Positions 6,475 to 40,273 of a DNA stretch of 56,562 nt are shown here, one piece after another. A program made the position numbers and the translations under genes. This DNA comes from a virus, in IMG/VR virus record IMGVR_UViG_3300028802_000016, positions 1 through 56,562 of that record, one strand, 5' to 3'. Position 1 is the first letter of the stretch; the number at the start of each line of letters is the position of its first letter. Below the pieces are notes generated by a model. It was not told the origin of the DNA. It worked only from the letters and a program-made list of their open reading frames with translations, and made no database searches.

Positions 6475-6813
6475 ATGTTGAGCCCACTTGCCTTCCCCGC
6501 ACTCGGCGCCGCCGCCGTCCTGGCCGTCCTCGCCGTCCTCGCCTTCATCGGCGTGACGCTGCTGCGCCCGGATGCCCCCGAGGGCTGGCCGAAGATCAAG
6601 GCCCCCAAGCTCGGTGGCCGCCACGAGCTGGCCACCGTCCCCGAACCCCGCCGCCCCCGCAACTGGGACGCCGTCCTGGCCGAGGCGTACGTGACCCTTC
6701 CGCTGCCCGAGATCACCGAGGAGCCGGAGCCGATCGACGAGCTGGACCCCCGCTGGGACTGGCGCGCCTACGCCGACACCCAGGAAGAGACCCACGAGCT
6801 GGTGGCCGCCTGA
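6475..6813 (+). CDS. Small membrane-anchored protein
   Basis: The 112-residue protein has one N-terminal transmembrane segment (residues about 8-28, Ala/Val/Leu-rich, followed by LLR). A Pro-rich basic region and an acidic C-terminus with Glu/Asp-Pro repeats follow. AAGGAGG lies seven bases before the ATG. Its stop overlaps the start of the ParB-like gene. It is the first rightward gene after the divergent region; function is unknown. Confidence 0.65.
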   Translation: MLSPLAFPALGAAAVLAVLAVLAFIGVTLLRPDAPEGWPKIKAPKLGGRHELATVPEPRRPRNWDAVLAEAYVTLPLPEITEEPEPIDELDPRWDWRAYADTQEETHELVAA

Positions 6814-14209: not shown

Positions 14210-14287
14210 GGGCTTGAAAGCTGAGAAGGTCGGCGATCAGCACCGGGTTTATGCCGGAGGTTCGCGGGTTCGAATCCCGTCAAGTCC
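14210..14287 (+). tRNA. tRNA, anticodon uncertain (TTA in a 7-base loop)
   Basis: The acceptor GGGCTTG pairs with CAAGTCC (one G-T). The D-stem GCTGA/TCAGC has a 12-base loop, and the T-arm is GCGGG-TTCGAAT-CCCGT. The anticodon stem is CCGG/CCGG with loop GTTTATG. The central triplet is TTA, which would read UAA stop codons. Positions 32 and 37 have bases that are unusual there, so this reading needs caution. The discriminator is A; no CCA is encoded. Confidence 0.62.
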
Positions 14288-14383
14288 ACGCGAAGGAACG
14301 CCAGGTGTCGTCCCGCCCCTCTGGGGGCTCGGTCGGCTGCTCAGCCTGGAGTCAACCGACGCCGCCGGAACGAGCACCCGGCG

Positions 14384-14453
14384 GGCCCTGTAGCTCAGCG
14401 GATAGAGCACCCGCCCCTGGCGGGAGGTCGGCGGTTCGAACCCGTCCAGGACC
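14384..14453 (+). tRNA. tRNA with a shortened anticodon loop, possibly CCT
   Basis: The acceptor GGCCCTG pairs with CAGGACC except one C-A mismatch. The D-arm is GCTC/GAGC with an eight-base loop. The T-arm is GGCGG-TTCGAAC-CCGTC and the variable loop is AGGTC. The anticodon stem CCCGC/GCGGG encloses only five bases, CCCTG, two short of normal and without T33. The central triplet CCT would be Arg. Outside the anticodon loop it is a typical class I tRNA of 70 bases. Confidence 0.65.
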
Positions 14454-14463
14454 ACGTAAGCAA

Positions 14464-14665
14464 GGCGACGTAGCTCAGACAGGACAGAGCACCCTCGGTC
14501 GAAGAATGCCGTGCGCACGGCACGACGCGACCCCCGGCCGGTACAGCCGGTGCTCAGAGGGAGGAGTGGCCCGAAGGATCACCCAGGTCCGCGCCCGGCA
14601 GGATCAGCCGGGAGTCGGATGGGACCGAGCCAGAGGACCCCGGAGGTTCAAATCCTCCCGTCGCC
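14464..14665 (+). tRNA. tRNA-like gene carrying a large insertion
   Basis: The acceptor GGCGACG pairs fully with CGTCGCC, the D-stem is GCTC/GAGC, and the T-arm is GGAGG-TTCAAAT-CCTCC. Between D-stem and T-stem lie 151 bases (14491-14641). They begin CCTCGGTC and end GACCGAGCCAGAGG, so CTCGGTC pairs with GACCGAG and CCTC can pair with GAGG. Inside are a 16-base palindrome centred on GTGCGCAC and the hairpin CCCGGC-AGGATCA-GCCGGG. The insert is smaller than the group I introns I know of and I see no group I core. The secreted inhibitor gene starts 33 bases downstream and is probably co-transcribed. Confidence 0.55.
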
Positions 14666-14697
14666 ACGCAGCATTCGCCCACCAACCAGGAGGTCCC

Positions 14698-15096
14698 GTG
14701 CGCACCAAGCTCAAGGCCGCACTGCTCACCCTCGCCGCCTCGGTGAGTCTGCTCAGCGTCGCCGCCCCCGCCCAGGCCGCCCTCACCGATTGCCCCCTCG
14801 GCAGCTTCTGCCTCTGGACCGCAACCAACTACAGCGGCTCCCGCTTCCAGTACTCCAAGGCCACCTTCGACGCCCACTACCGCCACGGCATCGAGTTCGG
14901 CTCCGGCGTCTCCAACCGGGGCTACTCGTTCTACAACCACACCACCGTCGCCATCAACATCTACGACTCCGGCGACTGCTCCTACAGTCCCTGGACGCGG
15001 ACCATGGCCAGCGGCCAGTACGCGACCGCTCAGGGTTCCGACTGGGGCGGCCGGGTGTCCTCCGCGCAGATCAAGGCATACGCTCCTGCCTGCTGA
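14698..15096 (+). CDS. Secreted peptidase inhibitor, family I36 type
   Basis: The 132-residue protein starts at GTG with AGGAGG four bases upstream. It has a Sec signal peptide (K-L-K-A-A-L-L-T-L-A-A-S-V, cleaved after A-P-A-Q-A). The mature part has D-C-P-L-G-S-F-C-L-W, then G-S-R-F-Q-Y-S, then S-N-R-G-Y-S-F-Y-N and W-G-G-R-V-S-S. These match I36 inhibitors such as the Streptomyces metalloproteinase inhibitor SMPI, a beta/gamma-crystallin fold. Four cysteines can form two disulfides. It would be exported by the infected host. A paralogue lies at 32250-32666 on the other strand. Confidence 0.8.
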   Translation: MRTKLKAALLTLAASVSLLSVAAPAQAALTDCPLGSFCLWTATNYSGSRFQYSKATFDAHYRHGIEFGSGVSNRGYSFYNHTTVAINIYDSGDCSYSPWTRTMASGQYATAQGSDWGGRVSSAQIKAYAPAC

Positions 15097-19382: not shown

Positions 19383-21338
19383 GTGGGGCTGCTGACCGGC
19401 AAGCGCAAGGTCGTACCAGCAGGAGGGGCTGACGGCCCCGGCACCCGCACTATGGCGCTCACCGCAGCCGCCGTCCCGATCAACCTGGGCGACGCCGCGT
19501 CATGGCAGATGTTCAAGCTCGGCGACCACCGCTGGCAGTGGGAGGCGTGGCGCCACTACGACATCTGCGGGGAGATGCGCTTCGTCGTCAACTGGATCGG
19601 CAACGCCGTCTCCCGCTGCCGCATGTACGCCGCCGACGTCTCCGAGGACGGCACCGTAGGCGACGAGACCACCGACCCGCAGGCCAAGCTCATCGGCGAG
19701 ACAATGTTCGGCACGCCCGCCTCGAAGGCGCAGGCCCAGCGTGCGATGGGCATCAACATGATGGTCGCCGGGGACGTGTTCATCGTCGCCGAGGGCTATC
19801 AGCAGACCGGCCAGGACGGCACCCCCGACCAGGACAAGTGGTACGTGTGCTCCTCGTCGGAGGTGTTCCGGCGCGGCGACGACATCATGGTCAAGCGGTC
19901 GATCACACACGGCGGCGGCACGTACAAGCTGGACTCGGCGAAAGACCTGCTGATTCGCGCCTGGAATCCGCACCCGCGCCGTCACGACGCCGCCGACTCC
20001 ACGGTCCGGGCGATCCTGCCGGTGCTGCGGGAGCTGGAGCAGTGCACGAAGCGGGTGTTCGCCGAGCTGGACTCGCGTCTGGCCGGTGCCGGAATTTTGT
20101 TGCTGCCCGACAACATCGACTTCCCGAGGCCGCCGCAGGAGAACCCCGGTGACCCGGTGCCGACGGGTATCCAGGGGTTCGCGCAGGTCCTCCAGCGCAC
20201 CATGGCCACCTCGCTCCAGCAGCGCGACTCCGCTGCCGCTCTGGTGCCGTTGCTGTTGCAGGTGGCGCCGGAAGCCCTCGACAAGATCAAGCATCTGACG
20301 TTCGACTCGCAGCTCAGCGACAAGATCATCGACATGCGCCGGGCCGCCGTCGAACGCATGGCCATGTCCCTGGACATCCCGCCCGAGGTCTTGACCGGCA
20401 TGGGCGGCAGCAACCACTGGTCGTCGTGGCAGATCGAAGAGTCCTCGATCAAGATCCACATCGAGCCGCTGCTGATCCAGCTCGCCGACGCCCTCAACAT
20501 CGGCTACTACCAGCCCGCCCTCAAGGCCGCAGGCGTCAAGAACCCCGAGAAGAAGACCCTCTGGTTCGACATCGCCGCGCTCACCGTCCGGCCCAACCGG
20601 TCCGAGCAGGCCATGCAGTTCGCCGAGAAGGAATTCATCTCCGCCAAGGCCGCCCGCGACAACGCCGCCTTCTCCGACGACGACGCGCCGGACAAGAAGG
20701 AGTTGCAGTACAACCTCGTCAAGGCGCTGGTGCTGGCCAACCCCGCCTACGCCACCGACCCCGAGGTGCAGAAGATCCTCAACCTGCCCGCCATCCAGGC
20801 CCAGGGCCCCGCTGCCGCCCCCGGCGCAGGCGACCTGATGCCCGGTGACCCCGGCTACGACGAGGCCGGGAGCGAGCCCGCCGACGTCGGCGCCCGTGGC
20901 CTGCCGCAGTTCCCGTCCGTCGAAGACGCCGAAGCCGGGAAGGTCCCGCCGAAGGGCCGCCAGAAGCTCGGCCAGCTCGCCGCGTCCGTCGGCACCCTCG
21001 AAGGGACACCGCTGTTCTACGCCGCCGACAGCGCCGTGCGCCGCGCCCTGGAGCTGGCCGGTGGCCGCCTGGTGCCCGGCCCGCAGCGCGCCCGCTACCC
21101 GGTGCCGAAGCACGAGTTGCATACCCGTGTGGCGGCATCGGCTACGCAGGTGCCCAGCCTCCTGGCGGGTGCGTGGTCGCATGTGCGAGAGCAGGCCCCC
21201 GCTCTCGGGGTCGATCCCGACGCCTTGGAAAGCGTGCTCGGCGGGTACTGCACGGAGCTGCTGACGCGGGGCGTGGCGCATGAGCCGGGCCTGCTGAGTT
21301 CGATGCTGCATCACACTCGGGGCGACCTCGCGCCATGA
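19383..21338 (+). CDS. Portal protein
   Basis: The 651-residue protein fits phage portal proteins in size, position and motifs: F-V-V-N-W-I-G-N-A-V-S-R-C-R near residue 65, G-D-V-F-I-V-A-E near 130, and M-S-L-D-I-P-P-E-V-L-T-G near 330. Helical stem segments follow, then an extended Ala/Pro-rich C-terminus. A dodecameric ring of it forms the DNA entry vertex and binds terminase. The GTG start follows the previous stop by four bases. The stop overlaps the start of the next gene within a GATCGAAAAT copy of the recurring motif. Confidence 0.88.
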   Translation: MGLLTGKRKVVPAGGADGPGTRTMALTAAAVPINLGDAASWQMFKLGDHRWQWEAWRHYDICGEMRFVVNWIGNAVSRCRMYAADVSEDGTVGDETTDPQAKLIGETMFGTPASKAQAQRAMGINMMVAGDVFIVAEGYQQTGQDGTPDQDKWYVCSSSEVFRRGDDIMVKRSITHGGGTYKLDSAKDLLIRAWNPHPRRHDAADSTVRAILPVLRELEQCTKRVFAELDSRLAGAGILLLPDNIDFPRPPQENPGDPVPTGIQGFAQVLQRTMATSLQQRDSAAALVPLLLQVAPEALDKIKHLTFDSQLSDKIIDMRRAAVERMAMSLDIPPEVLTGMGGSNHWSSWQIEESSIKIHIEPLLIQLADALNIGYYQPALKAAGVKNPEKKTLWFDIAALTVRPNRSEQAMQFAEKEFISAKAARDNAAFSDDDAPDKKELQYNLVKALVLANPAYATDPEVQKILNLPAIQAQGPAAAPGAGDLMPGDPGYDEAGSEPADVGARGLPQFPSVEDAEAGKVPPKGRQKLGQLAASVGTLEGTPLFYAADSAVRRALELAGGRLVPGPQRARYPVPKHELHTRVAASATQVPSLLAGAWSHVREQAPALGVDPDALESVLGGYCTELLTRGVAHEPGLLSSMLHHTRGDLAP

Positions 21339-21640: not shown

Positions 21641-21831
21641 ACTGGACCCGCGAAGACTTCGAGAAAGACCGCCTGCGGTACGAGACGGCCCTGGCCGCCC
21701 TCCTCGAAAGCGGGCTCTCCGAAGAGCATGCCCTCGTCCGCCGTCAACGCCGCCGCATCGCCGTCGTCGACCGCGTACTCACCGACCCCGCCTTCGGCAT
21801 GGTCCAGCCTGAAACCGAGGAGCAGCCGTGA
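21637..21831 (+). CDS. Small helical protein
   Basis: The 64-residue protein starts M-N-W-T-R-E-D-F-E-K-D-R-L-R-Y at an ATG overlapping the previous stop. It is highly charged and helical, with Arg-rich L-V-R-R-Q-R-R-R-I in the middle. Its end overlaps the GTG of the MuF gene. Position suggests a head-assembly accessory; no motif is recognised. Confidence 0.6.
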   Translation: MNWTREDFEKDRLRYETALAALLESGLSEEHALVRRQRRRIAVVDRVLTDPAFGMVQPETEEQP

Positions 21832-23261
21832 CCCAGCCCGTCACCCTGCCTACCGCGACCGCACAGCAGCAGGCCGCCGTGGAGGTCTTCGCCCAGTACG
21901 AGCCGCCCCTGTATGAGGCGTACCTGGAGATGATGCTGGAGTGGCTGGCCGCCGTGAAGACGGCCATGTTCACCGGCGGCGTCGTCTCCCTCGGGCTCGT
22001 CCCCGACCCGATGACGGTCTTCTCCCAGACCCCGAAGTGGAACGCCCTCACCGAGAAGTACAGCGAGCAGGTCGCCCGGGAGGTCCTGGCCGCCCCGTAC
22101 CGGGACCTGTTCGCCGACGGCACGCTCTTCGAGTCACGGCCGTTCGTCCGGAACTGGATCGCCGCCCGCGCCAACCGGCTCCAGCAGGTCCCCAACGAGG
22201 TTTTCGGCGCCGTCACCCACATCGTCGACTCCGCCACCACCAACGGAGCCTCAATCCCCGACGTGCAATCCCAGATCGAACAGCTGTTCGGCGACACCGG
22301 CGTGCAGCAGTGGAAGAACCGGGCCCGCACCGTTGCACGAACAGAGGTCGTCGGCGCCTACAACGGCGGGCTGTACGACGCGTTCTCGATGATCGTCGAC
22401 AACGACCCGGACACCGACTGGGTGAAGCGCTGGCTCGCCACCGAGGATCACCGCACCCGCCCCGACCACCGCGAGGCTGACGGCCAGGTGGTGCCCTTTT
22501 CGCAGCCGTTCATCATCGGCGGGGAACAGGACGCCACCGGGCAGATCGTCGGCGGCTTCCAGATGATGTACCCGCACGACCCGGAAGGGCCGCCGCACGA
22601 GGTCATCAACTGCCGCTGCACCATGCTGCTGGAGATCAAAAACGAGCCGACGGAGATGGGTAACCGCCAGTTCCTCAACGCCTCCGGCACCACCCTCATG
22701 CAGTCCGTCTGCGACCACGGGCAGTTCTGCATGCAGACCCACAAGCCCGGCCTCTGCAAGGGCCAGAAGCGCGGCCAGTCCGAACCCGGCACCCAGGACG
22801 CCGCCCAGGCCAACCCCGTCCGCAAGGCCCAGGTCGCGCAGAAGGGCCTCACCGACGCCATCGCCCAGGCGCAGGCCGTCGCCGCCGTCGAGAAGACCCG
22901 CAACCCGCGCCTGGCCGCCGCCGCCAAGAAGGCCGTCGCCGCCTACGTGAAAGCGCTCCGGCCGCACGAGCAGACACTGAAGGAAGCCGCCCGCGACAAC
23001 GACAAGGCGAAGCGCACCGGTGAGCAGGACACCCGGCAGCAGGACGCCATCGACAAGCGGGGCCAGAAGAAGCGGGAGACGCTGAAGAAGCACGCCCAGG
23101 CCATCGTCGACCGGCGCCGTCGGCAGGCCGAGGAGACCGCGAAGATCGCCAAGATGTCGAAGAAGCAGGCCGCCGCGTACCGCAAGACCCGGGCGGAGAA
23201 GACCCGCCGCCAGCGCGAAGCCCGCGAGAACAAGGTCATCAAGCAGGCGAACAGCTCCTGA
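21828..23261 (+). CDS. MuF-like minor head protein
   Basis: The 477-residue protein has the phage Mu protein F-like signature: R-T-V-A-R-T-E-V-V-G-A-Y-N-G-G near residue 170, then H-R-T-R-P-D-H-R-E-A-D-G-Q near 210, and H-E-V-I-N-C-R-C-T-M-L near 260. A Cys/His element, C-M-Q-T-H-K-P-G-L-C-K-G, follows near residue 304. The C-terminal ~150 residues form a Lys/Arg/Ala-rich helical rod. MuF proteins sit inside the head near the portal and in some phages carry or load toxins that enter the cell with DNA. A shared HxPGxCKG motif also occurs in the giant protein downstream. Confidence 0.82.
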   Translation: MTQPVTLPTATAQQQAAVEVFAQYEPPLYEAYLEMMLEWLAAVKTAMFTGGVVSLGLVPDPMTVFSQTPKWNALTEKYSEQVAREVLAAPYRDLFADGTLFESRPFVRNWIAARANRLQQVPNEVFGAVTHIVDSATTNGASIPDVQSQIEQLFGDTGVQQWKNRARTVARTEVVGAYNGGLYDAFSMIVDNDPDTDWVKRWLATEDHRTRPDHREADGQVVPFSQPFIIGGEQDATGQIVGGFQMMYPHDPEGPPHEVINCRCTMLLEIKNEPTEMGNRQFLNASGTTLMQSVCDHGQFCMQTHKPGLCKGQKRGQSEPGTQDAAQANPVRKAQVAQKGLTDAIAQAQAVAAVEKTRNPRLAAAAKKAVAAYVKALRPHEQTLKEAARDNDKAKRTGEQDTRQQDAIDKRGQKKRETLKKHAQAIVDRRRRQAEETAKIAKMSKKQAAAYRKTRAEKTRRQREARENKVIKQANSS

Positions 23262-23323
23262 GCGGTATCCTGCCTCCCGACGCCACCGAGATGGTGGCGA
23301 ACCCCGAGATGGGAGACGGCGAG

Positions 23324-23650
23324 ATGCCTGCTGAAACGATCTACAGCAACACAGGAGTCGACGTTCGGGTGAGCTGGGGGGGCGAGGGCCAGGAGACGGT
23401 CCAGATCGTCACCCAGGCCGCCCGCCGCGACGGCGTGGAAGACCCGACCGCCCGGATGATCAGCATCGTCAACGACTGGCTGAAGGGCGCTGGCGAGCCG
23501 ACGATCGATCTGGCCAAGCTGAAGGAAGCCCTGCCGTACGAGCCCAGCTTCGACGGCTGGTGGATGACCCTGGATGACTGGGGCTCGCTCAACCGGCTGA
23601 TCAAGGTGCTCCAGCGCGCCCGGGACCGCTCGTTCGGTGCGCCTGGCTGA
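23324..23650 (+). CDS. Unknown protein, 108 residues
   Basis: The ATG at 23324 is preceded by GGGAGA at seven bases, which favours it over an earlier in-frame ATG at 23291. The protein starts M-P-A-E-T-I-Y-S-N-T-G-V-D-V-R-V-S-W. An N-terminal beta segment is followed by a helical region and W-W-M-T-L-D-D-W-G-S-L-N-R-L-I. A strong terminator follows directly. No family is recognised. Confidence 0.65.
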   Translation: MPAETIYSNTGVDVRVSWGGEGQETVQIVTQAARRDGVEDPTARMISIVNDWLKGAGEPTIDLAKLKEALPYEPSFDGWWMTLDDWGSLNRLIKVLQRARDRSFGAPG

Positions 23651-23660
23651 CGCAGAAAAA

Positions 23661-23694
23661 GGAGCCCTCACCCTTTCCGGGTGGGGGCTCTTTT
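23661..23694 (+). terminator. Rho-independent terminator
   Basis: GAGCCCTCACCC pairs with GGGTGGGGGCTC around TTTCC, followed by TTTTGTG. It separates the MuF transcription unit from the giant gene, which then needs its own promoter. Confidence 0.85.
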
Positions 23695-23711
23695 GTGTCG
23701 GTGCGCCGCAT

Positions 23712-23740
23712 GCTTCATGATCAAAAATAATCGCTATGAT
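23712..23740 (+). promoter_or_regulatory. Probable promoter for the giant gene
   Basis: TATGAT (23735-23740) lies seven bases before the ATG at 23748, so the transcript would be leaderless. A weak -35 (about 23712-23717) lies 17 bases upstream, and the GATCAAAAAT copy of the recurring motif occupies the spacer. The string CGCTATGATC recurs upstream of the capsid gene at 36363. Confidence 0.5.
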
Positions 23741-23747
23741 CCCTGGC

Positions 23748-26700
23748 ATGACGACGACGCTCGGGAGCCTGTTCAAGGGCGGCGGGGTCTATGTCGCCCC
23801 CGTCGCCCCCGTCGACCCCGCCACGTACGCCATCGTCACCGGCCAGCCCGCCCCCGACCTGGCCGACGCAATCGCCACGGTCGCCCTGCTGGCCAGCGCT
23901 CACGCCCCCAGCCTCGGCTCCCTGTCGCACATCGTCGCGAGCGTCCAGGGATGGGCCAACCAGGATGATGACGCCCACGACACCTGCGACTGGGATTCCC
24001 TGGTCGCCTGCCGTAACCCGCTGCACCCGGGCCCCTGCAAAGGCTGGAAAGGCACCCTCCACTCCGTCGCCCCCGGCACCTACTACCAGGTAGAAGCCGC
24101 CCGCGTCGCGAAGGCCAACACCCGGCGCGTCCAGAAGATCGCCGACCTCAAGGCGCAGGGCAAGCCGATCCCCCGCCGCCTGCTGGACGAGATCAAGCCG
24201 AAGGCCGCCCCGGGCCACCCGGCCCACGGCGCGCAGCCCGTCCCCCTCGGTCAGGTCAACCAGAAGGCCGACCTTGCAGGCGGTCAGGCCCACGCCGCCG
24301 GTCAGGCCGTGTCCAAGGCCGCTGGTGTCCAGGTCAACACGCCCGGCCCGCTGCCGCTCGGCCCGAAGGGCAAGAAGCCCACCATCGCCGGTCGCGGCCC
24401 CGCGTTCGTCATTACCCAGCCCAAGGTCACCGACACCTACAAGCTGGGCAAGGCCGACAAGCTCACCCCGCAGGAGTGGAACGACCTCTCCGACGCCGAC
24501 AAGAAGACCATCCGCGACGAGCTGGAGGCCATCAAGCAGCGCGGCTTCGGCCCGCAGCAGAAGAAGGCCGACGAGCTGCTGGCCCGCCTCCCCGAGAAGG
24601 GCCTGGCGCCGGGCACCCCGAACACGGTCACCACCCCCAAGGGCAACGTCCACCAGGCCATCAATCCGGCCCCCGGGAAGGTCAGCCTGGGCACCGCAAC
24701 CAAGACGGCAGGAACGGCCCCCAGCGCCCCCAGGGCGGCCCCCAGCGCCCCCGCCGCGCCCAGCGCACCCAAGCCCACCGCCACGGCCCCCACGCCCGGC
24801 ACAGCGGTCACCACGATGACGCCCGTCGGCGTCGCCGGGAAGATCCGCAAGGACGGCCACGCCGACATCATCCTGGGCGGCAAGAAGGTCCGGACCGGTT
24901 TCGCCAGCAGCAGCCACCCGGGCAAGCTGACCATGGCCCCCGGCGGCCACTACGTCGTCACCGAGGCCGACGGCACCAAGCACACCCTCGCCAAGGGCCA
25001 GCACGTCCAGGTGGCCACCGACAGCGGCGCCCCCGCGACGCCGCAGGTGGCCCCGGCCCCGACGCCCGCCACCCCCAGGGCGCTGTCCCCCGACGCCCAG
25101 AACGCCCGCGCTGTCGCCGGTCGCGGCCTCGGCCGTCCCACCTCCAAGGCGCACCTCGACGCCTACGGCAAGCTGTCCAAGGCCGACTTCGACTCCCTCG
25201 ACGCCACCACGCAGAAGACGATCCGCGACGACCTGGCCAACGCGAAGGCGAAGTTCCTCGACCCGGCGAAGAAGCAGGCCGCGCAGGATGTCCTCGACCG
25301 CCTCGGCGCCAAGCACCCCGCGACCGCCCCGACGCACCCGTCCGGCGCGAAGGGCTACAGCGACCCGCAGAACGAGGCCGTCAAGGCGACCAGCTCCGGT
25401 CTCATCTCCACCGACGACGTACTGAAGACCGTCGGCCGCCTCTCCCCCAACGCCGTCAAGGGCCTCTCCGACGACGACCGCAAGCGCCTCCTCGGCCGCC
25501 TTGCATTCGTCGCCACCCACCCGAAGGCCACCCCCGACCAGAAGGCGAAGGCCGCCGCGTACGGGCGAATCATCAACAGCGGCAGCCCCGACGCGAAGAC
25601 CCTCACCCTCGACCACGAGCCGTCACTGGGGGAGCTGCACGCCCACGAGGAGAAGGCCGCCGCCGTCAAGGGTCAGGCCAGCGCCGCGAAGGTGACGACC
25701 GCCCTGGACGCCGCCGACGCGAAGATCCCGGGCGCCGGACCCGGCGCCCGGATCAAGGCGCTCAACGGCCTCGACAAGGCGCAGTTCGACAGCCTCAAGC
25801 CCGACCAGCAGCGGAAGATCACCGATGCGCTCCAGGAGCTGCATCACGCGAACGCGGGATACGGCAAGACCCGCACCGACGACGACCAGGTCGCCGAGGA
25901 CGCCCTGGCGCGGTACACCGGCCAGCACCCGGCCGTGCACCGCGCCGTTCAGGCCGAAGCCGACTTCCGGGCGGGCCGGATCACCCCCGACGAGCTGCAC
26001 AGCGAGATCCTGCACGCCCGCGTCCAGCTCCCCGTCGGCCAGAGCGCCGCCCGCGCCAAGCTCCAGCAGGAAGAGCAGCGGATCGCCGAGGACAACGCGA
26101 CCCTGCCGACCTGGCTGCGCGCCTCCTTGATCGAAAACAAGTACTCCAGTGTGCGTGGCAATCCGTACGACGTGATCGCCCAGCTCTCCATGAAGCACAT
26201 GTGGGGGCCCGCCCCCCGGATGAGTTCGGGGGACTTCCGGTTCATCTTCAACTCCGCCGACGCGAACCTGGCGAACACCCACCCCATCCACGTCGAAGCG
26301 ATCAAGGATTTCCGCGAGAACATCGTCAGCACGGGCCTCGACTCCGCCAGCCCCTGGTCCACCGCGACCAAGGGCCAGCTCGTCGACTCCCTGCTGAGCA
26401 GCGGCTACGCCCCCAGCCCGGTCGTCACCGACGACCGGATGAAGATGTTCCACGACCTCACCCCGGCCACCCAGATGAAGGTCCGCACCGCCCTGGCCGA
26501 CCGGATCCTGGCCCAGACGCACCCGCGCGCGAAGGCCGCCACCGACATCACCCTGCGGCAGTTGCAGGGCCACCCGTACCAGGGCCATCAGCTCGACGCT
26601 GCCCTGGCCGCTGCCGACGCGTCCCTGCGGAGCACCAACTACGACACCTACCGCAAGCTGGCGCCGTCGGAATACCAGGGCCTCTCCCCGATCATTCAGG

Positions 26701-28997
26701 GGGCCATCGATGACCAGCTCGACCACTACCAGCGCCGGGCCGAGGGCCACGGCCAGGTCGTCAACTTCGGTCTCCAGAGCAACGCGCTGAAGGAGTTCCC
26801 CGCCGCCCTCAAGGCGCAGCTCAACGGGACCCGCGAGCAGCACCTCGGACGCGCCGAGCGCAACGCCTCCGACGTGGCGAACTACGGCACGAAGATCGTG
26901 CTGCCCGAGTACCGCGTGGACGTCTACAGCGGCCTGTCCATCGCCGCCTTCCGGAAGATGTCGACGCACACCCAGGACAAGGTCCACGCCGACCTCGACA
27001 CGATCGGAAACGACAGCGGGAACCCGCTTGGCCTGCGATACCGCGCGCTGCGCGCCAAGGACATCGACCTGGGCGACGCCCCCGGGCTCAACGCCAACCA
27101 GATCGCCGCCATCGCCAGCGTCAACCCGACCAACCCCACCAGCGACAGCAACGCCCACGCCGCCCTCGCCCTCCTCGACAAGGCCGACTACGACAAGCTG
27201 AACACGACCTACCGTGAGGCCGTCGACCAGCGGGTCCAGGGCCTGTCCGACCCGATGCAGCAGCAAGCGCTGACGGTCAAGTTCCACCCCAACACCCCGG
27301 CCGCGTCCACCCCCGCCGGGATCAACCCGACCAAGCCCGCGACCGTGCAACCGCACGTGCAGGACGCCCTGGACACCATCTACGGCGTCCACCCGAAGTC
27401 GCACACCATGGCGCACCAGCTCAAGACGTACGGCTCGCTGCGCGGCTCCGACTTCGGCCAGCTCAACCCGCAGGAACAGTCGCACCTGCTGTCCGACCTG
27501 TCGTTCATCGAGACCACCGCGAAGGGCCCGTCGGCCGCCAAGGCGAAGCTGCTCATCGACCGGTTCACCCCGGCCGGTACCCCGCCCGGCCAGATCCCGC
27601 CGCAGCCGATCATCCCCCCGGCCAACGCCATCCCCGGCCAGGTCCGCTACGCCACCCCGCTCAAGGGGCTGGAGATGTCGAAGAACCCCGGCGTCTCCGG
27701 CGACCAGTGGATCACCACCTCGTCCGGCCGCCGCGTCTGGGGCAAGTACGGCGCGTCCGGCATGCTGATCAGGCACGTCGACCCGAACACCGGCGAAGAG
27801 CGCTACCTGATGGTGCAGCGCGGTCCCGCCATCTCCGACCCCGGCATGTGGACGTTCCCCGGCGGCGCCAGCGAGTCGAAGGAGACCCCGCACGAAGGCG
27901 CCACCCGCGAGACGATCGAGGAGCTGGGCCTCAAGGACGACCAGTTCAAGGACGCCCAGGTCCACGGCGACTTCACCTACTCGATCCCGAACAGCACGTG
28001 GAAGTACACGTCGGTTGCCGTCCAGGTGCCCAGCCAGTTCCAGCCGAACCTGTCGACCGCCCACGCCCGCGCCGAGACGTCCGACGCGAAGTGGATGACG
28101 ATCGACGAGATCCGCGCGCTCGACCGGTCCGGCAAGCTGCACGGCCCGATCGCCAACGGCCTGCTGGAGAAGAACGTCATCAGCCTGTACCCGGCCGCCG
28201 GGGCACCGGCCGGTACGACCCTGGGCCAGGCTGTCCGGCCCGGCCCGGTCACTAAGCGGCAGGGCCGCCTCGGCTTGCCGCACGGTGGCCGTCAGGCGCC
28301 CGCCTCGTTCAACGCCTGGCCGCACGCGCACAAGCCGTCCACGGGCAAGAACCTCGTCGGCGACATGGCGTCCATCAACAAGCTGCGGCAGGACGTCAAG
28401 CAGGCCCGCACCGCCTACGACGGCAAGACCGGCGACGGCCGCCTGGCCGCCATCGGTGCGATGCAGGGCTACGACGACACCCCGACGGTCGCCAGCCGCG
28501 CCGAGGTCGACCGGCTCCTGGCGACCGGCGACTACATCGAGGCGTGGCGCGGCGTCAACCGGGGCAGCGGCAAGAGCGCGGCCCAGATCAACGAGGACTT
28601 CCGCTCGGGCCCGGCCTGGTACGGGCGGGGGATCTTCGGCAACGGCTACTACCTGGCCACCCAGAAGACCGTCGCCCAGAAGTACTCGGACCACTCGAAG
28701 AACAGCCTCGTCCGGATCTTGATCCCGAAGAGTGCCGTGACCGAGCACTACAGGAAGGTCCAGGGGGAGGCCCGCGCCAACTCGTCCAGCCAGTCGAAGG
28801 CGAAGGGCAAGTACGAGGACGGCACGTTGTACGACGCTGGCCGTTGGGCTGCCGCGAAGGGTGTCGACGGCATCCAGATCAACCACGACACCACGAACGA
28901 CCGGGGCGGCTGGGCGCGGCACGTCGCGGCGCCCGGGAAGCCCGCCTTCAATTGGCTCAACCGCTCCGTGCTGATCGTCCAGGAGGCCGACAAGTGA
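23748..28997 (+). CDS. Giant head-associated protein with Nudix box and probable ADP-ribosyltransferase domain
   Basis: The protein has about 1749 residues. Near residues 86-98 it has an LHPGPCKGWKG element like that of the MuF protein. Residues about 230-1260 hold some nine copies of a helical module with the pattern Y/L-x-x-L-x-x-x-x-F/W-x-x-L, e.g. L-S-K-A-D-F-D-S-L-D. A Nudix box follows around residue 1370: G, then E, then RETIEELGL, matching GX5EX7REUXEEXGU. The last ~160 residues have A-W-R-G-V-N near 1597, Y-G-R-G-I-F-G-N-G-Y-Y-L-A-T near 1625, and D-G-I-Q-I-N-H. This resembles an ADP-ribosyltransferase fold with its conserved Arg. The start has no ribosome-binding site. Co-injection with DNA is inferred from its position beside MuF. 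Confidence 0.7.
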   Translation: MTTTLGSLFKGGGVYVAPVAPVDPATYAIVTGQPAPDLADAIATVALLASAHAPSLGSLSHIVASVQGWANQDDDAHDTCDWDSLVACRNPLHPGPCKGWKGTLHSVAPGTYYQVEAARVAKANTRRVQKIADLKAQGKPIPRRLLDEIKPKAAPGHPAHGAQPVPLGQVNQKADLAGGQAHAAGQAVSKAAGVQVNTPGPLPLGPKGKKPTIAGRGPAFVITQPKVTDTYKLGKADKLTPQEWNDLSDADKKTIRDELEAIKQRGFGPQQKKADELLARLPEKGLAPGTPNTVTTPKGNVHQAINPAPGKVSLGTATKTAGTAPSAPRAAPSAPAAPSAPKPTATAPTPGTAVTTMTPVGVAGKIRKDGHADIILGGKKVRTGFASSSHPGKLTMAPGGHYVVTEADGTKHTLAKGQHVQVATDSGAPATPQVAPAPTPATPRALSPDAQNARAVAGRGLGRPTSKAHLDAYGKLSKADFDSLDATTQKTIRDDLANAKAKFLDPAKKQAAQDVLDRLGAKHPATAPTHPSGAKGYSDPQNEAVKATSSGLISTDDVLKTVGRLSPNAVKGLSDDDRKRLLGRLAFVATHPKATPDQKAKAAAYGRIINSGSPDAKTLTLDHEPSLGELHAHEEKAAAVKGQASAAKVTTALDAADAKIPGAGPGARIKALNGLDKAQFDSLKPDQQRKITDALQELHHANAGYGKTRTDDDQVAEDALARYTGQHPAVHRAVQAEADFRAGRITPDELHSEILHARVQLPVGQSAARAKLQQEEQRIAEDNATLPTWLRASLIENKYSSVRGNPYDVIAQLSMKHMWGPAPRMSSGDFRFIFNSADANLANTHPIHVEAIKDFRENIVSTGLDSASPWSTATKGQLVDSLLSSGYAPSPVVTDDRMKMFHDLTPATQMKVRTALADRILAQTHPRAKAATDITLRQLQGHPYQGHQLDAALAAADASLRSTNYDTYRKLAPSEYQGLSPIIQGAIDDQLDHYQRRAEGHGQVVNFGLQSNALKEFPAALKAQLNGTREQHLGRAERNASDVANYGTKIVLPEYRVDVYSGLSIAAFRKMSTHTQDKVHADLDTIGNDSGNPLGLRYRALRAKDIDLGDAPGLNANQIAAIASVNPTNPTSDSNAHAALALLDKADYDKLNTTYREAVDQRVQGLSDPMQQQALTVKFHPNTPAASTPAGINPTKPATVQPHVQDALDTIYGVHPKSHTMAHQLKTYGSLRGSDFGQLNPQEQSHLLSDLSFIETTAKGPSAAKAKLLIDRFTPAGTPPGQIPPQPIIPPANAIPGQVRYATPLKGLEMSKNPGVSGDQWITTSSGRRVWGKYGASGMLIRHVDPNTGEERYLMVQRGPAISDPGMWTFPGGASESKETPHEGATRETIEELGLKDDQFKDAQVHGDFTYSIPNSTWKYTSVAVQVPSQFQPNLSTAHARAETSDAKWMTIDEIRALDRSGKLHGPIANGLLEKNVISLYPAAGAPAGTTLGQAVRPGPVTKRQGRLGLPHGGRQAPASFNAWPHAHKPSTGKNLVGDMASINKLRQDVKQARTAYDGKTGDGRLAAIGAMQGYDDTPTVASRAEVDRLLATGDYIEAWRGVNRGSGKSAAQINEDFRSGPAWYGRGIFGNGYYLATQKTVAQKYSDHSKNSLVRILIPKSAVTEHYRKVQGEARANSSSQSKAKGKYEDGTLYDAGRWAAAKGVDGIQINHDTTNDRGGWARHVAAPGKPAFNWLNRSVLIVQEADK

Positions 28998-29642: not shown

Positions 29643-31484
29643 ATGGGGACCGCCTGGAAGATGCCCATCGCCGTCATCGGCAAGCCGACCGGCGACGGCC
29701 GCCAGTTCGACGCTGGCGCCCTCGGGCACCGCGACCTGCCGCTGCCTCTGCGGTACGTGGCCAGCGACTCCGGCGGCCACTCCAACGCCGTCATCGTCGG
29801 CCACATCTCCAAGATCGGAAACGAGAAGAGCGGCGTACTGCCCGCCGAAGGCGAGTTCTACGACGACTCCTCCTGGCCCGAGGACGTGCGCAGCGCTGCC
29901 CTGGCCGCCCGGAAGTTCACGGCCAACAAGGTCATCGGCCCCTCCGTCGACCTCGACCAGCAGGAAGTCGAGATCGTTCCCGAACCCAAGGCGTACTCCG
30001 CCTGGAAGAAGGAGCAGGCCGGGAAGATCAAGGCCGCGAAGATGGCGCACTCCAAGCTGTCCGGATCGGACTGCGGCTGCGGCGCCGACCCGGTCATGGC
30101 CGAGGAGCCGTACGACGGGCCCCGGCTGCGGATGATCCGGTCCGGCCGCCTCGCCTCGGCGACCCTCGTGCACATCCCCGCGTTCGCCGAGCTGGCCGGG
30201 CACGCGAAGCTGACGCTCGACTCCTCCGACCCGAACGTGGACGGCACGACCGCCAGCGCCAAGATCGAAAACGACGCCGAGATGAGCGACGACCAGGACA
30301 CCGGCATCTGGCTCACCGATGACGACTTCCTGGAGTTCGCCAAACGGCGCCTGCCCAGCAAGAACAAAGACGGCGAGACCGAGCCGTCCGGCCAGGCCGA
30401 GCACGGCGGCCTGTTCGCCGACCGGTCGAAGATCGACGACGCGGACTTCGTCGACCCCGAGGGCCGACGCTTCCCCATCACCGACTGCTCCTCCGTCGGT
30501 GACGCCGTCTCCTCCTACGGCCGGGCCAACCCGAAGATCCCGTACGAGAAGTTCAAGGCCCGCGTCATGGCGATCGCCAAGCGTAAGGGCTGCGAGAGCA
30601 GCCTCCCCGACAACTGGAAGGCCGGAGCGAAGATGGCCGCACTCATGGCCGCCGGGGCACCGGCTGCCCCTCTCGGGGAATGGTTCGACGACCCGAATCT
30701 GCCCGGCCCGACGCCGCTGCACATCGGCGACGACGGCCGCGTGTACGGGCACGTCGCGGTCTGGGACACCTGCCACGTCGGCATCGGCAACTCGTGCGTG
30801 AAGCCGCCCAAGACGCAGACCAACTACGCGTACTTCCACACCGGTGAGGTTGTGGTCGATGACGGCTCCCGCATCCCCGTAGGGCGTCTGACGTACGGCG
30901 GCGGCCACGCCCAGCCGAGTCTCGGCTACCGGGCGGCGGCGGAGCACTACGACCAGACCTCCAACACCGGCGCCCTCGTGCGCGCGGGCGAAGACGCCCA
31001 CGGCATCTGGGTCGCCGGTGCCCTCACCCCCGAAGCCGACGAGGCAGCCGTACGGCAGATGCGCGCGGCGCCGCTGTCCGGCGACTGGCGGCGGATCGGC
31101 GGCAACCTGGAGATGGTCGCCGCCCTGCACGTCAACACCGCAGGATTCCCAATCCCCCGCGCCATGGCCGCCTCCATCCACGGCGGCGTCCTGGACGCCG
31201 CCGAGACCGAGATGGACATGCTTTCCCTCGTCTCCGCCGGTGCGCTCCCCCGCGTCATCGACGAGGGCGAGCAGGACACCGCCACGGCGGCGGGATCGCT
31301 CGACACCGAGGAGCTGGGCCGGGCCATCGCCCGGGGCATGCTCGCCGAGCAGCAGGCCGCAGCCGACCGGACGGCGCGGACCAGCGAATGGAACGAGCTG
31401 GTCGCGGCGGCCATGTCCGAGGGCCGCGAGGCCGATTACGATGAGGCCATGGGTGACCTGTTGGTCGCCCTGGTGGAGGAGTAG
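29643..31484 (+). CDS. Capsid maturation protease-like protein
   Basis: The 613-residue protein begins M-G-T-A-W-K-M-P-I-A-V-I-G-K. Its N-terminal ~190 residues contain G-H-S-N-A-V-I-V-G-H near residue 45, then acidic and basic turns, then A-T-L-V-H-I-P-A-F-A-E-L near 180. Actinophage prohead proteases often have this start. A central Asp/Glu-rich region (residues about 200-240) and a domain with G-R-V-Y-G-H-V-A-V-W-D-T-C-H-V near 360 follow. The C-terminus is helical and may be a scaffold segment. Three motif copies lie in or near it (29158, 29810, 30260). It would cleave the scaffold and capsid during assembly. Confidence 0.65.
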   Translation: MGTAWKMPIAVIGKPTGDGRQFDAGALGHRDLPLPLRYVASDSGGHSNAVIVGHISKIGNEKSGVLPAEGEFYDDSSWPEDVRSAALAARKFTANKVIGPSVDLDQQEVEIVPEPKAYSAWKKEQAGKIKAAKMAHSKLSGSDCGCGADPVMAEEPYDGPRLRMIRSGRLASATLVHIPAFAELAGHAKLTLDSSDPNVDGTTASAKIENDAEMSDDQDTGIWLTDDDFLEFAKRRLPSKNKDGETEPSGQAEHGGLFADRSKIDDADFVDPEGRRFPITDCSSVGDAVSSYGRANPKIPYEKFKARVMAIAKRKGCESSLPDNWKAGAKMAALMAAGAPAAPLGEWFDDPNLPGPTPLHIGDDGRVYGHVAVWDTCHVGIGNSCVKPPKTQTNYAYFHTGEVVVDDGSRIPVGRLTYGGGHAQPSLGYRAAAEHYDQTSNTGALVRAGEDAHGIWVAGALTPEADEAAVRQMRAAPLSGDWRRIGGNLEMVAALHVNTAGFPIPRAMAASIHGGVLDAAETEMDMLSLVSAGALPRVIDEGEQDTATAAGSLDTEELGRAIARGMLAEQQAAADRTARTSEWNELVAAAMSEGREADYDEAMGDLLVALVEE

Positions 31485-36430: not shown

Positions 36431-38272
36431 GTGCCGAACCTGCCTTTCCAGGTCCCGACTGACGAGGACGGCTCGTACGCCTTCTCGGGCATGACGAGCG
36501 AGGACCTGACTTCGATCCGCACCCAGGCCCGCGACGCGGCGGCCCGGTACGCGGACATGGACGTCGCGGACGTTCAGCCGGGCGACATCGAGACCATGCG
36601 CGAGCTGACCACCATCGTCAAGGGTGTCGACGCGGAGCGCAGCCGCCGCAGTGGTGCGGCTGGCGCCTTCGCCGCCCTGACCGAATCTCTCGGCGAGGAC
36701 GACGAGACCGGAACCGACGAGACCCCGGCGGGCGCGGGCATCGAGGACGCGAAGACGGACACCCCCGCAGCGCAGACCGCAGCCGCCAAGGCCCCGGGTG
36801 TCGCCGCCGTGGCGTCCAACACGGTCCCCGCCGTCCCGGCCGAGACCGTGGCCCGACAGGCACCGGCCGTCATCCTCGCCGGGGCCAACAACGGCGACGC
36901 GAACATGGGCGAGGAGCTGGACTGGACCCGCGTCGGCAAGCTCGTCGAGAAGCGCTTCCTCCAGTACAGCGCGATGGGCGGCCAGGGTGGTCGCCAGCAG
37001 CACTCCATCGCCCAGTTCAAGACGGAGTACCCGCAGGAGCTGACCGCGTCCGGCGGCCTCCAGGAGGACGCGACGGCGGTCATCGACTACGCGGCCAGCG
37101 AGAAGCGCCTTCCCGGCGGCTCGCTGCTGGCGTCGGTGGAGATCAAGCGCAAGGCCGCTCTCGCGGCTGGCGCGCCGAACGCGCTGACGGCGGCCGGTAC
37201 CGGCTGGTGCGCGCCGTCGGAGGTCATCTACGACCTGTGCGAGCTGGAGTCGGCGGACGGCATGCTGGACATCCCGGAGATCAACGTCTCCCGGGGCGGC
37301 ATCAAGTTCACGACCGGCCCGGACTTCTCGTCGATCTACTCCGGCTCGGGCTACTTCCACTACACCGAGTCGCAGATCATCGCGGGCGTCACCAAGCCCG
37401 TCATGTCCGTCGCCTGCCCGTCGTTCACCGACGTGCGGCTGGACGCTGACGGCCTGGCGATCCAGACGGACCTGCTCCAGCTCCGTGGCTACCCGGAGCT
37501 GATCGCCCGGTTCGTGCGGGGCGCGATGATCGCCCACTCGCACAAGATCAACCAGTTCGTGATCAACTCGCTGGTCACCGGCTCCACCGCGATGCCGCTG
37601 CCCTCGGGCGTCACCGCGCACACCCCCGGCGCCGGAACCACGTGGGCCACCGACCACTCGGTCGTCTCCACCCTGCTGACCGCCATCGACATGGCGATCA
37701 TGGACTACAAGTACCGCCAGCGGATGGCCCTCGCCTCCACCCTGGAGGTCGTCTTCCCGTACTGGGTGCTCGCCTGGATCCGGTCCGACATCGCGCGCAA
37801 GCAGTTCTACGACGCCGACGCGACGAACGACCAGTTCAACCTGACCATGGAGCGCATCAACACCTGGCTGGCCGCACGTGGCGCCCGCGCGCAGTACGTG
37901 TACGACTGGCAGGACGCGTCCTACTGGGCGGCCTACCCGACCGGCGCGCCGTCGGCGTGGCAGCAGTTCGGCCAGGCCCCGACCTCCACGGACTTCGTCC
38001 AGGACTTCCCCCACACCCTCCAGTTCCTGCTCTACGCGGCCGGTACCTGGGTGCGCGGCAACGCCGACATCATCACCCTGGACACCGTCTACGACAGCAC
38101 CCTGCTGGCGCAGAACAAGACCACCCAGCTCTTCACCGAGCAGGGCATCCTCGCGGCCAAGACCTGCTTCGACAGCCGCCTCTACACGATCGGCAACATC
38201 ACCGGCGGCCTGGTCCCGAGCGGCGCGGGCGCGTTCGCCCCGACCACTCAGCCGACCTGGACCAACCCGTAG
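36431..38272 (+). CDS. Major capsid protein with N-terminal scaffold region
   Basis: The 613-residue protein has an acidic, Ala/Glu/Thr-rich N-terminal region (residues about 20-165) typical of a fused scaffold or delta domain. From about residue 170 the HK97-type capsid body starts (G-E-E-L-D-W-T-R-V-G-K-L-V-E-K-R). Features include W-C-A-P-S-E-V near 260, G-G-I-K-F-T-T-G-P near 290, and a helical core with D-M-A-I-M-D-Y-K-Y-R-Q-R near 425. The start is GTG, with TAGGAG upstream. The maturation protease nearby would remove the N-terminal region. Confidence 0.85.
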   Translation: MPNLPFQVPTDEDGSYAFSGMTSEDLTSIRTQARDAAARYADMDVADVQPGDIETMRELTTIVKGVDAERSRRSGAAGAFAALTESLGEDDETGTDETPAGAGIEDAKTDTPAAQTAAAKAPGVAAVASNTVPAVPAETVARQAPAVILAGANNGDANMGEELDWTRVGKLVEKRFLQYSAMGGQGGRQQHSIAQFKTEYPQELTASGGLQEDATAVIDYAASEKRLPGGSLLASVEIKRKAALAAGAPNALTAAGTGWCAPSEVIYDLCELESADGMLDIPEINVSRGGIKFTTGPDFSSIYSGSGYFHYTESQIIAGVTKPVMSVACPSFTDVRLDADGLAIQTDLLQLRGYPELIARFVRGAMIAHSHKINQFVINSLVTGSTAMPLPSGVTAHTPGAGTTWATDHSVVSTLLTAIDMAIMDYKYRQRMALASTLEVVFPYWVLAWIRSDIARKQFYDADATNDQFNLTMERINTWLAARGARAQYVYDWQDASYWAAYPTGAPSAWQQFGQAPTSTDFVQDFPHTLQFLLYAAGTWVRGNADIITLDTVYDSTLLAQNKTTQLFTEQGILAAKTCFDSRLYTIGNITGGLVPSGAGAFAPTTQPTWTNP

Positions 38273-39580: not shown

Positions 39581-40273
39581 ATGACGTCCGTGTGTCAGGC
39601 CCCCATTCAGGGCACCACCATGCGGGTCCAGACGATCAACTCGTGCGGTACCCCTGCTGTGGGCTCCTGCGTGTCGGCCGTCTCGACCGGCTTCGTCTCC
39701 GTGGAGATGCAGGATCAGGTCGAGTCCGGTCAGGAGATCGTGGTCCTGAACGCGGCCGGTCAGATGTGCGTCAACGAGAAGTCGCCGACGCAGCTCAAGT
39801 GGATCGACACGACGATCACCTTCTGCAACGTCGACCCGGAGTTGTTCGGCCTGATCACGGGCTCCACGCTGGTCCTCAACGACGCCGCCTCCCCGGCGGC
39901 CGTCGGCTTCCAGACGCGTACGAGCAACTACGCGGCCGGGCAGTTCTCGCTGGAGGTGTGGACCAACATCTCAGGTGCCACGTGCGTCACCGTGGGCACT
40001 GCGTCCCTGGTGCCGTACGGGTACTTCCTGCTGCCGAACATCGTCGAGGGCCGTGTCGGCGACGTCAAGATCGAAAACGGTGCGGTGTCGTTCACCGTGG
40101 CGGGCCGCACCAAGCAGGGCACCAACTGGGGTCTCGGCCCCAAGAACGTGCTCGCCAACATGACCACGGCGGCGGCGGAGAAGCTGCTGATCGCTCTGCC
40201 GAGCGACACGCACCGCCACCTCCAGTGGACGTACCTGGCCCCGCCTGCCGCCTCGTGCGGCTGCGCGGCCTGA
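39581..40273 (+). CDS. Probable major tail protein
   Basis: The 230-residue protein is beta-rich with repeated cysteines (N-S-C-G-T-P, G-S-C-V-S, M-C-V-N-E). It has a central T-Q-L-K-W-I-D-T-T-I-T-F-C and Y-A-A-G-Q-F-S-L-E-V-W-T-N near 125, patterns found in tail-tube proteins. It ends A-A-S-C-G-C-A-A. A GATCGAAAAC copy lies at 40066-40078. The order capsid, small proteins, this gene, connector is unusual, so a second head protein is the alternative. Confidence 0.5.
   Translation: MTSVCQAPIQGTTMRVQTINSCGTPAVGSCVSAVSTGFVSVEMQDQVESGQEIVVLNAAGQMCVNEKSPTQLKWIDTTITFCNVDPELFGLITGSTLVLNDAASPAAVGFQTRTSNYAAGQFSLEVWTNISGATCVTVGTASLVPYGYFLLPNIVEGRVGDVKIENGAVSFTVAGRTKQGTNWGLGPKNVLANMTTAAAEKLLIALPSDTHRHLQWTYLAPPAASCGCAA

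What the first reader, a model, noticed from the sequence alone, without database searches (positions are those of the whole stretch)
23748..28997. A 1749-residue head-linked protein with Nudix and ADP-ribosyltransferase-like domains
The gene follows the MuF head gene and has about nine copies of a helical module, a canonical Nudix box and a C-terminus resembling an ADP-ribosyltransferase. Nudix enzymes can remove ADP-ribose or NAD-derived groups, and ADP-ribosyltransferases add them. One protein with both could modify and trim host targets after injection. Its place beside MuF suggests packaging in the virion. I know of no described protein with this whole architecture, but I could not search.
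Basis: partly seen in the sequence, partly recalled or inferred. Interest (0 to 1): 0.85.

Follow-up and report, generated by a model that had tools for sequence, protein, structure and literature searches.

The report
Tagged phage-head Nudix-ART effector protein
A metagenomic phage carries, among the genes that build its head, a giant protein that ends in two enzyme domains for NAD/ADP-ribose chemistry, and its relatives show that it is one member of a family of swappable, probably virion-packaged effectors that share a small cysteine-histidine tag.

Summary
Window 23748-28997 (+) encodes 1749 aa: eight detectable copies (a ninth is weak) of a ~50-aa helical module, a canonical RenU-like Nudix domain, and a C-terminal domain predicted to be an ADP-ribosyltransferase (ART) fold of the PARP type (pLDDT 94; all 50 listed PDB hits are PARP1/PARP2, but weak, best E 0.016). 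Its active site is atypical: Arg replaces the PARP His, pocket Gly and Tyr residues are kept, and the catalytic Glu is Ala/Ser/Gly in every Nudix-linked relative examined.

About 30 viral contigs carry this ART; no named phage matches it. Wherever the locus could be read, the gene lies in the head cluster, usually portal-MuF-gene-protease-capsid. Elsewhere the module-Nudix-ART cassette is fused to four kinds of portal or portal-MuF protein. This supports virion association better than gene position alone.

A pattern scan found it on 40 viral contigs, always fused to or beside head genes, with varied C-termini (Nudix-ART, R-S-E ART, zincin-like).

Packaged ART and Nudix effectors are known as a kind; this tagged modular set is a new variant. 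Packaging, injection and catalysis remain untested.

The parts
23748..28997 (+). CDS of the head-locus effector, 1749 aa
23985..24050 (+). N-terminal Cys/His tag (aa 80-101): C80-x7-C88-R-N-P-L-H93-P-G-P-C97-K-G-W-K
   Evidence: pattern on 40 IMG/VR contigs, all beside or fused to head genes
24438..24584 (+). helical module 1 (aa 231-279)
25152..25298 (+). helical module 2 (aa 469-517)
25416..25562 (+). helical module 3 (aa 557-605), matched by 2 of 300 shuffles
25749..25889 (+). helical module 4 (aa 668-714)
26424..26564 (+). proposed fifth copy (aa 893-939), not significant alone
   Evidence: 76 of 300 shuffles score as well
26640..26759 (+). helical module 6 (aa 965-1004)
26910..27053 (+). 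helical module 7 (aa 1055-1102)
27162..27269 (+). helical module 8 (aa 1139-1174), matched by 9 of 300 shuffles
27414..27560 (+). last helical module (aa 1223-1271), found before the Nudix domain in nearly all Nudix-ART relatives
   Evidence: helices in model
27696..28175 (+). RenU-like Nudix domain (about aa 1317-1476)
   Evidence: Pfam E 8e-14, 6uuf phmmer E 1.4e-14, Foldseek E 1.3e-9
27864..27929 (+). Nudix box G1373-x5-E1379-x7-R1387-E1388-x2-E1391-E1392-x-G1394
28344..28994 (+). PARP-like ART domain (aa 1533-1749): R1601, G1602, Y1635, Y1646; A1733 at the position of the catalytic Glu
23671..23687 (+). terminator-like hairpin plus T tract just upstream
   Evidence: (number in region not above chance), sequence
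23735..23740 (+). TATGAT, 7 nt before the ATG: possible leaderless start
   Evidence: read directly; no promoter above the scan threshold
19383..21338 (+). portal gene
   Evidence: phrog_776 E 2e-153
21828..23261 (+). MuF head gene
   Evidence: PF04233 E 6e-14
29643..31484 (+). capsid maturation protease-like gene
   Evidence: phrog_859/18402; 838 named phages, usually annotated as protease or protease-MuF fusion
36431..38272 (+). major capsid gene
   Evidence: phrog_777 E 3e-114

Best explanation
It is a virion effector of a lytic-type phage of a high-GC, probably actinobacterial host. The N-terminal Cys/His tag (possibly metal-bound) and the module array hold the protein in the procapsid near the portal and MuF. 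It leaves the head with the DNA, and the C-terminal Nudix-ART cassette then acts in the new host cell: the PARP-like ART uses NAD+ to put single ADP-ribose units on a host macromolecule, and the Nudix domain hydrolyses ADP-ribose or a related compound to AMP, clearing the by-product or a host ADP-ribose signal. Shown: gene, domains, predicted folds, conserved residues, head-gene context, fusions to portals. Inferred: packaging, injection, both activities, the target and the role of tag and modules.
For: Head context: portal-MuF-gene-protease-capsid order in all relatives whose contigs reach these genes. The same module-Nudix-ART cassette is fused to a phrog_776-type portal (L045/L046), a portal-MuF protein (L075/L054), a Mu-type portal (L076) and PF04860 portals (L027, L029); the ART without Nudix is fused to portals in L047, L080, L084, L086, L087. 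ART fold: pLDDT 94, pTM 0.90, all 50 listed PDB hits PARP1/2, Pfam PARP best E 9e-5 and ART-PolyVal 8e-4 among members. R1601 invariant, the Y1635 and Y1646 columns nearly so, in 22 aligned sequences. Nudix: RenU is the nearest solved relative and prefers ADP-ribose, FAD and NADH over NAD+ (PMC4401782). The Nudix domain also pairs with classical R-S-E ARTs (L013, L026), which suggests a shared NAD/ADP-ribose pathway. Tag: 40 of 40 contigs carry it in the head locus.
Against: No virion proteomics or enzyme assay exists. PARP matches are weak (Foldseek E 0.016 or worse, TM about 0.35) and all Pfam ART matches of the window protein are below the curated cut-offs. The PARP His is Arg and the catalytic Glu is Ala here, so the domain may not transfer. 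About 185 kDa is large for ejection, although larger ejected virion proteins are known (N4 RNA polymerase; own knowledge). Host not determined directly.
Confidence: 0.5

Rival explanations
1. The ART domain is a pseudo-enzyme or reader that binds NAD+, ADP-ribose or ADP-ribosylated targets, and the Nudix domain is the working part: an injected anti-defence enzyme that destroys ADP-ribose-type signals or NAD-derived products of host immunity.
For: The PARP Glu position is Ala/Ser/Gly in every Nudix-linked member examined, whereas the Nudix-less members L047, L078, L079, L080, L084, L086 have Gln or Glu there. The Nudix box is intact throughout. PMC9503650 argues that phage Nudix domains mainly counter soluble ADP-ribose derivatives.
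Against: Mono-ADP-ribosylating PARPs also lack this Glu (own knowledge). R1601, G1602, Y1635 and Y1646 are strongly conserved, more than a decaying pseudo-enzyme would suggest. The loss of Glu may be one event in one clade, and some Nudix-less members (L085, L087, L088) also lack it.
Confidence: 0.25
2. The ART domain is an NAD+ glycohydrolase: it depletes or converts NAD+ to ADP-ribose, which the Nudix domain splits to AMP and ribose phosphate, a two-step NAD+ destruction device.
For: Direct substrate-product logic of the fused pair; several ART-fold toxins are NADases (PMC13285283 abstract); RenU acts on ADP-ribose but not NAD+.
Against: PMC9503650 finds NADase-type ARTs under-represented in phages; a phage that needs host metabolism gains little; the missing acidic residue also argues against efficient NAD+ cleavage.
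Confidence: 0.12
3. The protein is mainly structural or a morphogenesis factor of the head, and the enzyme domains are vestigial.
For: Large, repetitive and always in the head cluster; module number varies from 1 to 9.
Against: Nudix residues are intact in all members; the C-terminal domain is exchanged for other enzyme domains behind the same tag; distant cluster-B-like named phages have the same head genes without it.
Confidence: 0.08
4. It is a toxin against rival bacteria carried by a prophage (MuF polymorphic toxin in the sense of Jamet et al.), with an immunity gene.
For: Tag plus variable C-terminal enzyme resembles polymorphic toxins (PMC5576092, PMC3482391).
Against: Two scans of one genome per 84,980 prokaryote species found no relative of the ART (pattern-seeded, so not exhaustive); no immunity gene was identified, although none was systematically sought.
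Confidence: 0.05

Closest known systems
Phage T4 Alt (virion-packaged ADP-ribosyltransferase)
   Same: ART domain in a protein predicted to travel in the head and act at once after DNA entry
   Different: Alt is of the R-S-E clade; here a PARP-like R-Y-(A) domain with a Nudix domain, modules and tag in one chain; packaging not shown
MuF-ART and MuF-toxin fusions (Gordonia phage Portcullis gp14, Microbacterium Percival/Goodman VIP2-MuF, MuF polymorphic toxins)
   Same: ART linked to MuF between portal and capsid genes; Portcullis gp14 has MuF plus a weak ADPrib_exo_Tox match; PMC7302621, PMC5576092
   Different: In the window the effector is a separate gene; different ART clade; Nudix and module array added. 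Tagged relative L112 does join MuF, tag and R-S-E ART
Polyvalent proteins / ART-PolyVal (PF18760)
   Same: large multi-domain head-locus protein; weak ART-PolyVal match
   Different: PolyVal ARTs use H-Y-D (PMC5512222); match below Pfam cut-off; no metallopeptidase domain in this chain
RenU, mycobacterial Nudix hydrolase (6uuf)
   Same: nearest solved relative of the Nudix domain by sequence (E 1.4e-14) and fold (E 1.3e-9), sharing the WGxxGAAG N-terminal stretch
   Different: RenU is a free-standing host enzyme of redox control; about 30% identity
Nudix domains fused to MuF, portal or capsid protease (PMC9503650); portal-Nudix phrog_15528
   Same: Nudix attached to head proteins, predicted to be injected
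   Different: described there as NudE-like or NadM-like, not paired with a PARP-like ART behind a module array
KptA ART-Nudix fusion of Bodo saltans virus (PMC9503650)
   Same: an ART and a Nudix domain in one viral protein
   Different: KptA is an RNA-repair H-H-h ART of a giant virus, not a head effector

Membership tests
Nudix hydrolases | Nudix box GX5EX7REUXEEXGU | tested here: met
   aa 1373-1394, catalytic residues kept in all relatives; the U after RE is Thr in the window
Nudix hydrolases | Nudix fold | tested here: met
   Pfam E 8e-14; Foldseek to RenU E 1.3e-9
Nudix hydrolases | hydrolysis of an NDP-X compound | not testable with these tools
   needs protein
ADP-ribosyltransferase superfamily (fold) | ART fold | tested here: met
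   confident model, listed PDB hits all PARP1/2 but weak, E 0.016-0.14
PARP-type ARTs (H-Y-E) | His of the first strand | tested here: not met
   Arg1601 at this position, invariant in 22 aligned sequences
PARP-type ARTs (H-Y-E) | Tyr of G-x-G-x-Y-[FL]-A and the downstream pocket Tyr | tested here: met
   Y1635 and Y1646, nearly invariant; tankyrase alignment
PARP-type ARTs (H-Y-E) | catalytic Glu | tested here: not met
   Ala1733; A/S/G in Nudix-linked relatives, E or Q in several Nudix-less ones; position judged by sequence alignment only
PARP-type ARTs (H-Y-E) | Pfam PARP gathering score | tested here: not met
   14.4 bits against 26.7 for the window domain
Polyvalent proteins | several unrelated effector domains in one phage-encoded polypeptide in a packaging context | tested here: met
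Polyvalent proteins | ART of the H-Y-D PolyVal type (PF18760) | tested here: not met
   17 bits against a cut-off of 31.2, Arg instead of His
MuF polymorphic toxins | MuF domain at the N-terminus of the same chain | tested here: not met
   MuF is a separate gene here; in one chain in relatives L075 and L112
MuF polymorphic toxins | conserved N-terminus with exchangeable C-terminal enzymes | tested here: met
   tagged proteins end in Nudix-ART, PF03496 ART or zincin-like domains
MuF polymorphic toxins | immunity gene next to the toxin | not tested
   not systematically sought
Virion-packaged effectors (T4 Alt type) | presence in the virion and injection | not testable with these tools
   only indirect: gene order and portal fusions
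Virion-packaged effectors (T4 Alt type) | R-S-E ART of the Alt/VIP2 clade | tested here: not met
   no PF03496 match in the window protein

The most novel reading that the evidence does not exclude
The CRNPLHPGPCKGWK domain is a portal- or MuF-associated loading tag of a polymorphic effector-delivery system in phage heads: any C-terminal enzyme behind the tag (Nudix-ART, R-S-E ART, zincin) is packed into the capsid and injected with the DNA, and the Nudix-ART cassette is a two-step NAD/ADP-ribose device with a new R-Y-(A) active site.
Probability: 0.35. Interest if true: 0.85.

Novelty: new variant of a known kind. Interest (0 to 1): 0.72.

Why it matters
If right, these phages carry a modular head-borne delivery system defined by one short tag, which would give a handle for finding unknown injected effectors and perhaps for loading chosen proteins into phage heads. 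The fused Nudix-ART pair poses a direct, testable question about whether a phage both writes and removes ADP-ribose, and the loss of the catalytic Glu in the Nudix-linked ARTs but not in several Nudix-less ones offers a natural comparison of ART mechanisms.

Tried and rejected
Close DNA relatives in named phages: none; protein relatives in named phages: only two weak Nudix matches, none for the divergent ART of L047, none convincing for the tag (the single weak hit in Streptomyces phage pSt2308 lies on the strand opposite to the annotated genes). Relatives in one genome per prokaryote species: none in two pattern-seeded scans. Known family for the helical module: no useful PDB or PHROG match. 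Module number as a substitute for portal fusion: fusions L046, L075, L076 have one copy but L027 has five and L029 two, so the idea was dropped. Glu loss as a strict mark of Nudix linkage: dropped as strict, because L085, L087 and L088 lack both. Strand coordinates printed for minus-strand ORFs are on the reversed strand; one search gives the right ones. A first Foldseek search with both domains returned only Nudix hits in the listed rows, so the ART was modelled alone. The zincin assignment rests on HExGH motifs alone; Pfam found nothing.

Full report
What was checked. The ORF at 23748-28997 (+) is intact and encodes 1749 aa. The window is a 56,562-bp linear virus record from IMG/VR, 67-69% G+C. 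Its structural genes follow the order of Rosebush-like actinophages: terminase 10750-12204, portal 19383-21338, MuF 21828-23261, this gene, a capsid maturation protease-like gene 29643-31484, major capsid 36431-38272, major tail protein 39581-40273, tape measure 45534-47942. Named phages with related protease and MuF genes mostly infect Mycobacterium, Gordonia and Microbacterium, so an actinobacterial host is likely but not shown. The named phages inspected in detail (Arthrobacter Odyssey395, Actinoplanes phiAsp2) have the same head genes without this protein.

Repeats. Nine seed copies were tested by leave-one-out profiles against 300 shuffles each. Six beat every shuffle (for copy 9 I use the hit on the copy itself, 11.3 bits against a best shuffle of 6.4), copies 3 and 8 were equalled by 2 and 9 shuffles, and copy 5 fails. 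An iterated profile finds 8 copies in the window, 8-9 in close relatives, 5-6 in more distant MuF-neighbour forms, 1 in several portal fusions, none in reversed proteins, and none in any other ORF of the loci. The last copy stands just before the Nudix domain in nearly all Nudix-ART relatives and is modelled as helices. No known family matches the module.

Nudix domain. Pfam NUDIX E 8e-14, with the box and metal-binding Glu residues conserved in all relatives. The nearest solved protein is RenU of M. smegmatis (Foldseek E 1.3e-9), which hydrolyses ADP-ribose, FAD and NADH but not NAD+ (PMC4401782). ADP-ribose is therefore a reasonable guess for the substrate, at about 30% identity.

ART domain. 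Sequence searches alone are weak: Pfam ART-PolyVal in 12 of 22 members (best E 8e-4) and PARP in 9 of 22 (best 9e-5), and below cut-offs for the window domain. A model from 22 relatives has pLDDT 94 and pTM 0.90. Every one of the 50 listed PDB matches is the catalytic domain of PARP1 or PARP2, although E-values (0.016-0.14) and TM-scores (about 0.35) are modest. By alignment, R1601-G1602 replace PARP His-Gly, Y1635 and Y1646 match the two pocket tyrosines, and A1733 stands where PARPs have the catalytic Glu (PARP numbering from own knowledge). The Glu column reads A, S or G in the Nudix-linked members examined, E or Q in L047, L078, L079, L080, L084 and L086, and other residues in L085, L087, L088. 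This may be a single evolutionary event. I could not inspect model coordinates, so the geometry is unverified.

Context in relatives. Two protein-seeded scans and three profile-seeded scans of IMG/VR returned about 30 contigs with Nudix-linked forms and several more distant ARTs. In all MuF-neighbour forms whose contigs reach that far, the order portal-MuF-effector-protease-capsid is kept. The cassette module-Nudix-ART is otherwise fused behind a phrog_776-type portal (L045/L046), a portal-MuF protein (L075/L054), a Mu-type portal (L076) and PF04860 portals (L027, L029). The ART without Nudix is fused to portals in L047, L080, L084, L086 and L087. Nudix is also joined to classical R-S-E ARTs in L013 and, together with the PARP-like ART, in L026. 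A tree of the cassette groups the MuF-neighbour and portal-fused forms separately but with weak deep support, so the number of independent fusions is not settled. Fusion to the portal, a virion vertex protein, is the strongest evidence for packaging.

The tag. The N-terminus carries C80-x7-CRNPLHPGPCKGWK (aa 80-101). A 30-nt degenerate DNA pattern covering only C-x-NPLHPGPC hit 43 stretches on 40 contigs of IMG/VR, most of them not fetched before. Residues outside the searched pattern are conserved in 36 distinct tags: F/Y before the first Cys (34), K/R-G-W after the last (34), an upstream Cys (27) and His (27). On each of the 40 contigs the tagged ORF is fused to or beside portal, MuF or protease genes (L128, without such genes in the stored stretch, shares its contig with L095 and L109, which have them). 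C-termini differ: Nudix-ART (window, L125, L130, L131), R-S-E ART with PF03496 above cut-off (L093, L099, L116, L129, L119), HExGH zincin-like (L101, L105/L123, L109, L110, L115/L119; motif only). L112 joins MuF, tag and R-S-E ART in one chain. This is the layout of polymorphic toxins, with a tag that I found in no named phage (a short query, so not conclusive).

How it probably works. Tag and modules anchor the protein in the head near portal and MuF; it leaves with the DNA; the ART modifies a host macromolecule with ADP-ribose and the Nudix domain removes ADP-ribose or a related compound. Gene content, predicted folds, conserved residues and head context are shown. Packaging, injection, activities and targets are inferred. 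The main rival is a non-transferring ART reader with a working, anti-defence Nudix domain.

Comparison with the literature. Packaged ARTs and Nudix domains, including fusions to MuF and portal, are described in PMC9503650 and PMC5512222, and MuF-VIP2 fusions in PMC7302621. The only ART-Nudix fusion found in the papers read is KptA-Nudix of Bodo saltans virus. Searches of the open library gave no description of a head-linked PARP-like ART with a Nudix domain or of this tag; subscription papers and preprints were not searchable. I file the protein as a new variant of a known kind and not as a member of the PARP, PolyVal or MuF-toxin families, because defining features of each were tested and not met.

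Noticed in passing
window 14251-15096 (+): ORF with a peptidase inhibitor I36 domain (PF03995, E 2.2e-11) between terminase and portal genes
   Followed up: no
window 41606-43027 (+): DUF4082 protein (E 3e-21) among tail genes
   Followed up: no
window 6813-8494 (+): two neighbouring ParB-like genes
   Followed up: no
L088 2648-9631: several neighbouring ORFs each matching a divergent copy of the PARP-like ART
   Followed up: no
window 23291-23650 (+); L011, L012, L032: the small phrog_10659 gene sits between MuF and the effector here but inverted, between protease and capsid genes, in three relatives
   Followed up: no
L047, L075, L076, L027, L080: a peptide HPRG-x-GGKF or a close form stands at head-protein/effector junctions of portal-fused relatives
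   Followed up: partly
window 23671-23750: terminator-like hairpin, then TATGAT 7 nt before the ATG, as for a separately transcribed, leaderless gene
   Followed up: partly
L101, L105, L109, L110, L119: tagged head-locus proteins ending in HExGH zincin-like regions without a Pfam match
   Followed up: partly
L060 3204-8654: N-terminal stretch before the tag looks like a GNAT acetyltransferase by eye; not confirmed by Pfam
   Followed up: no
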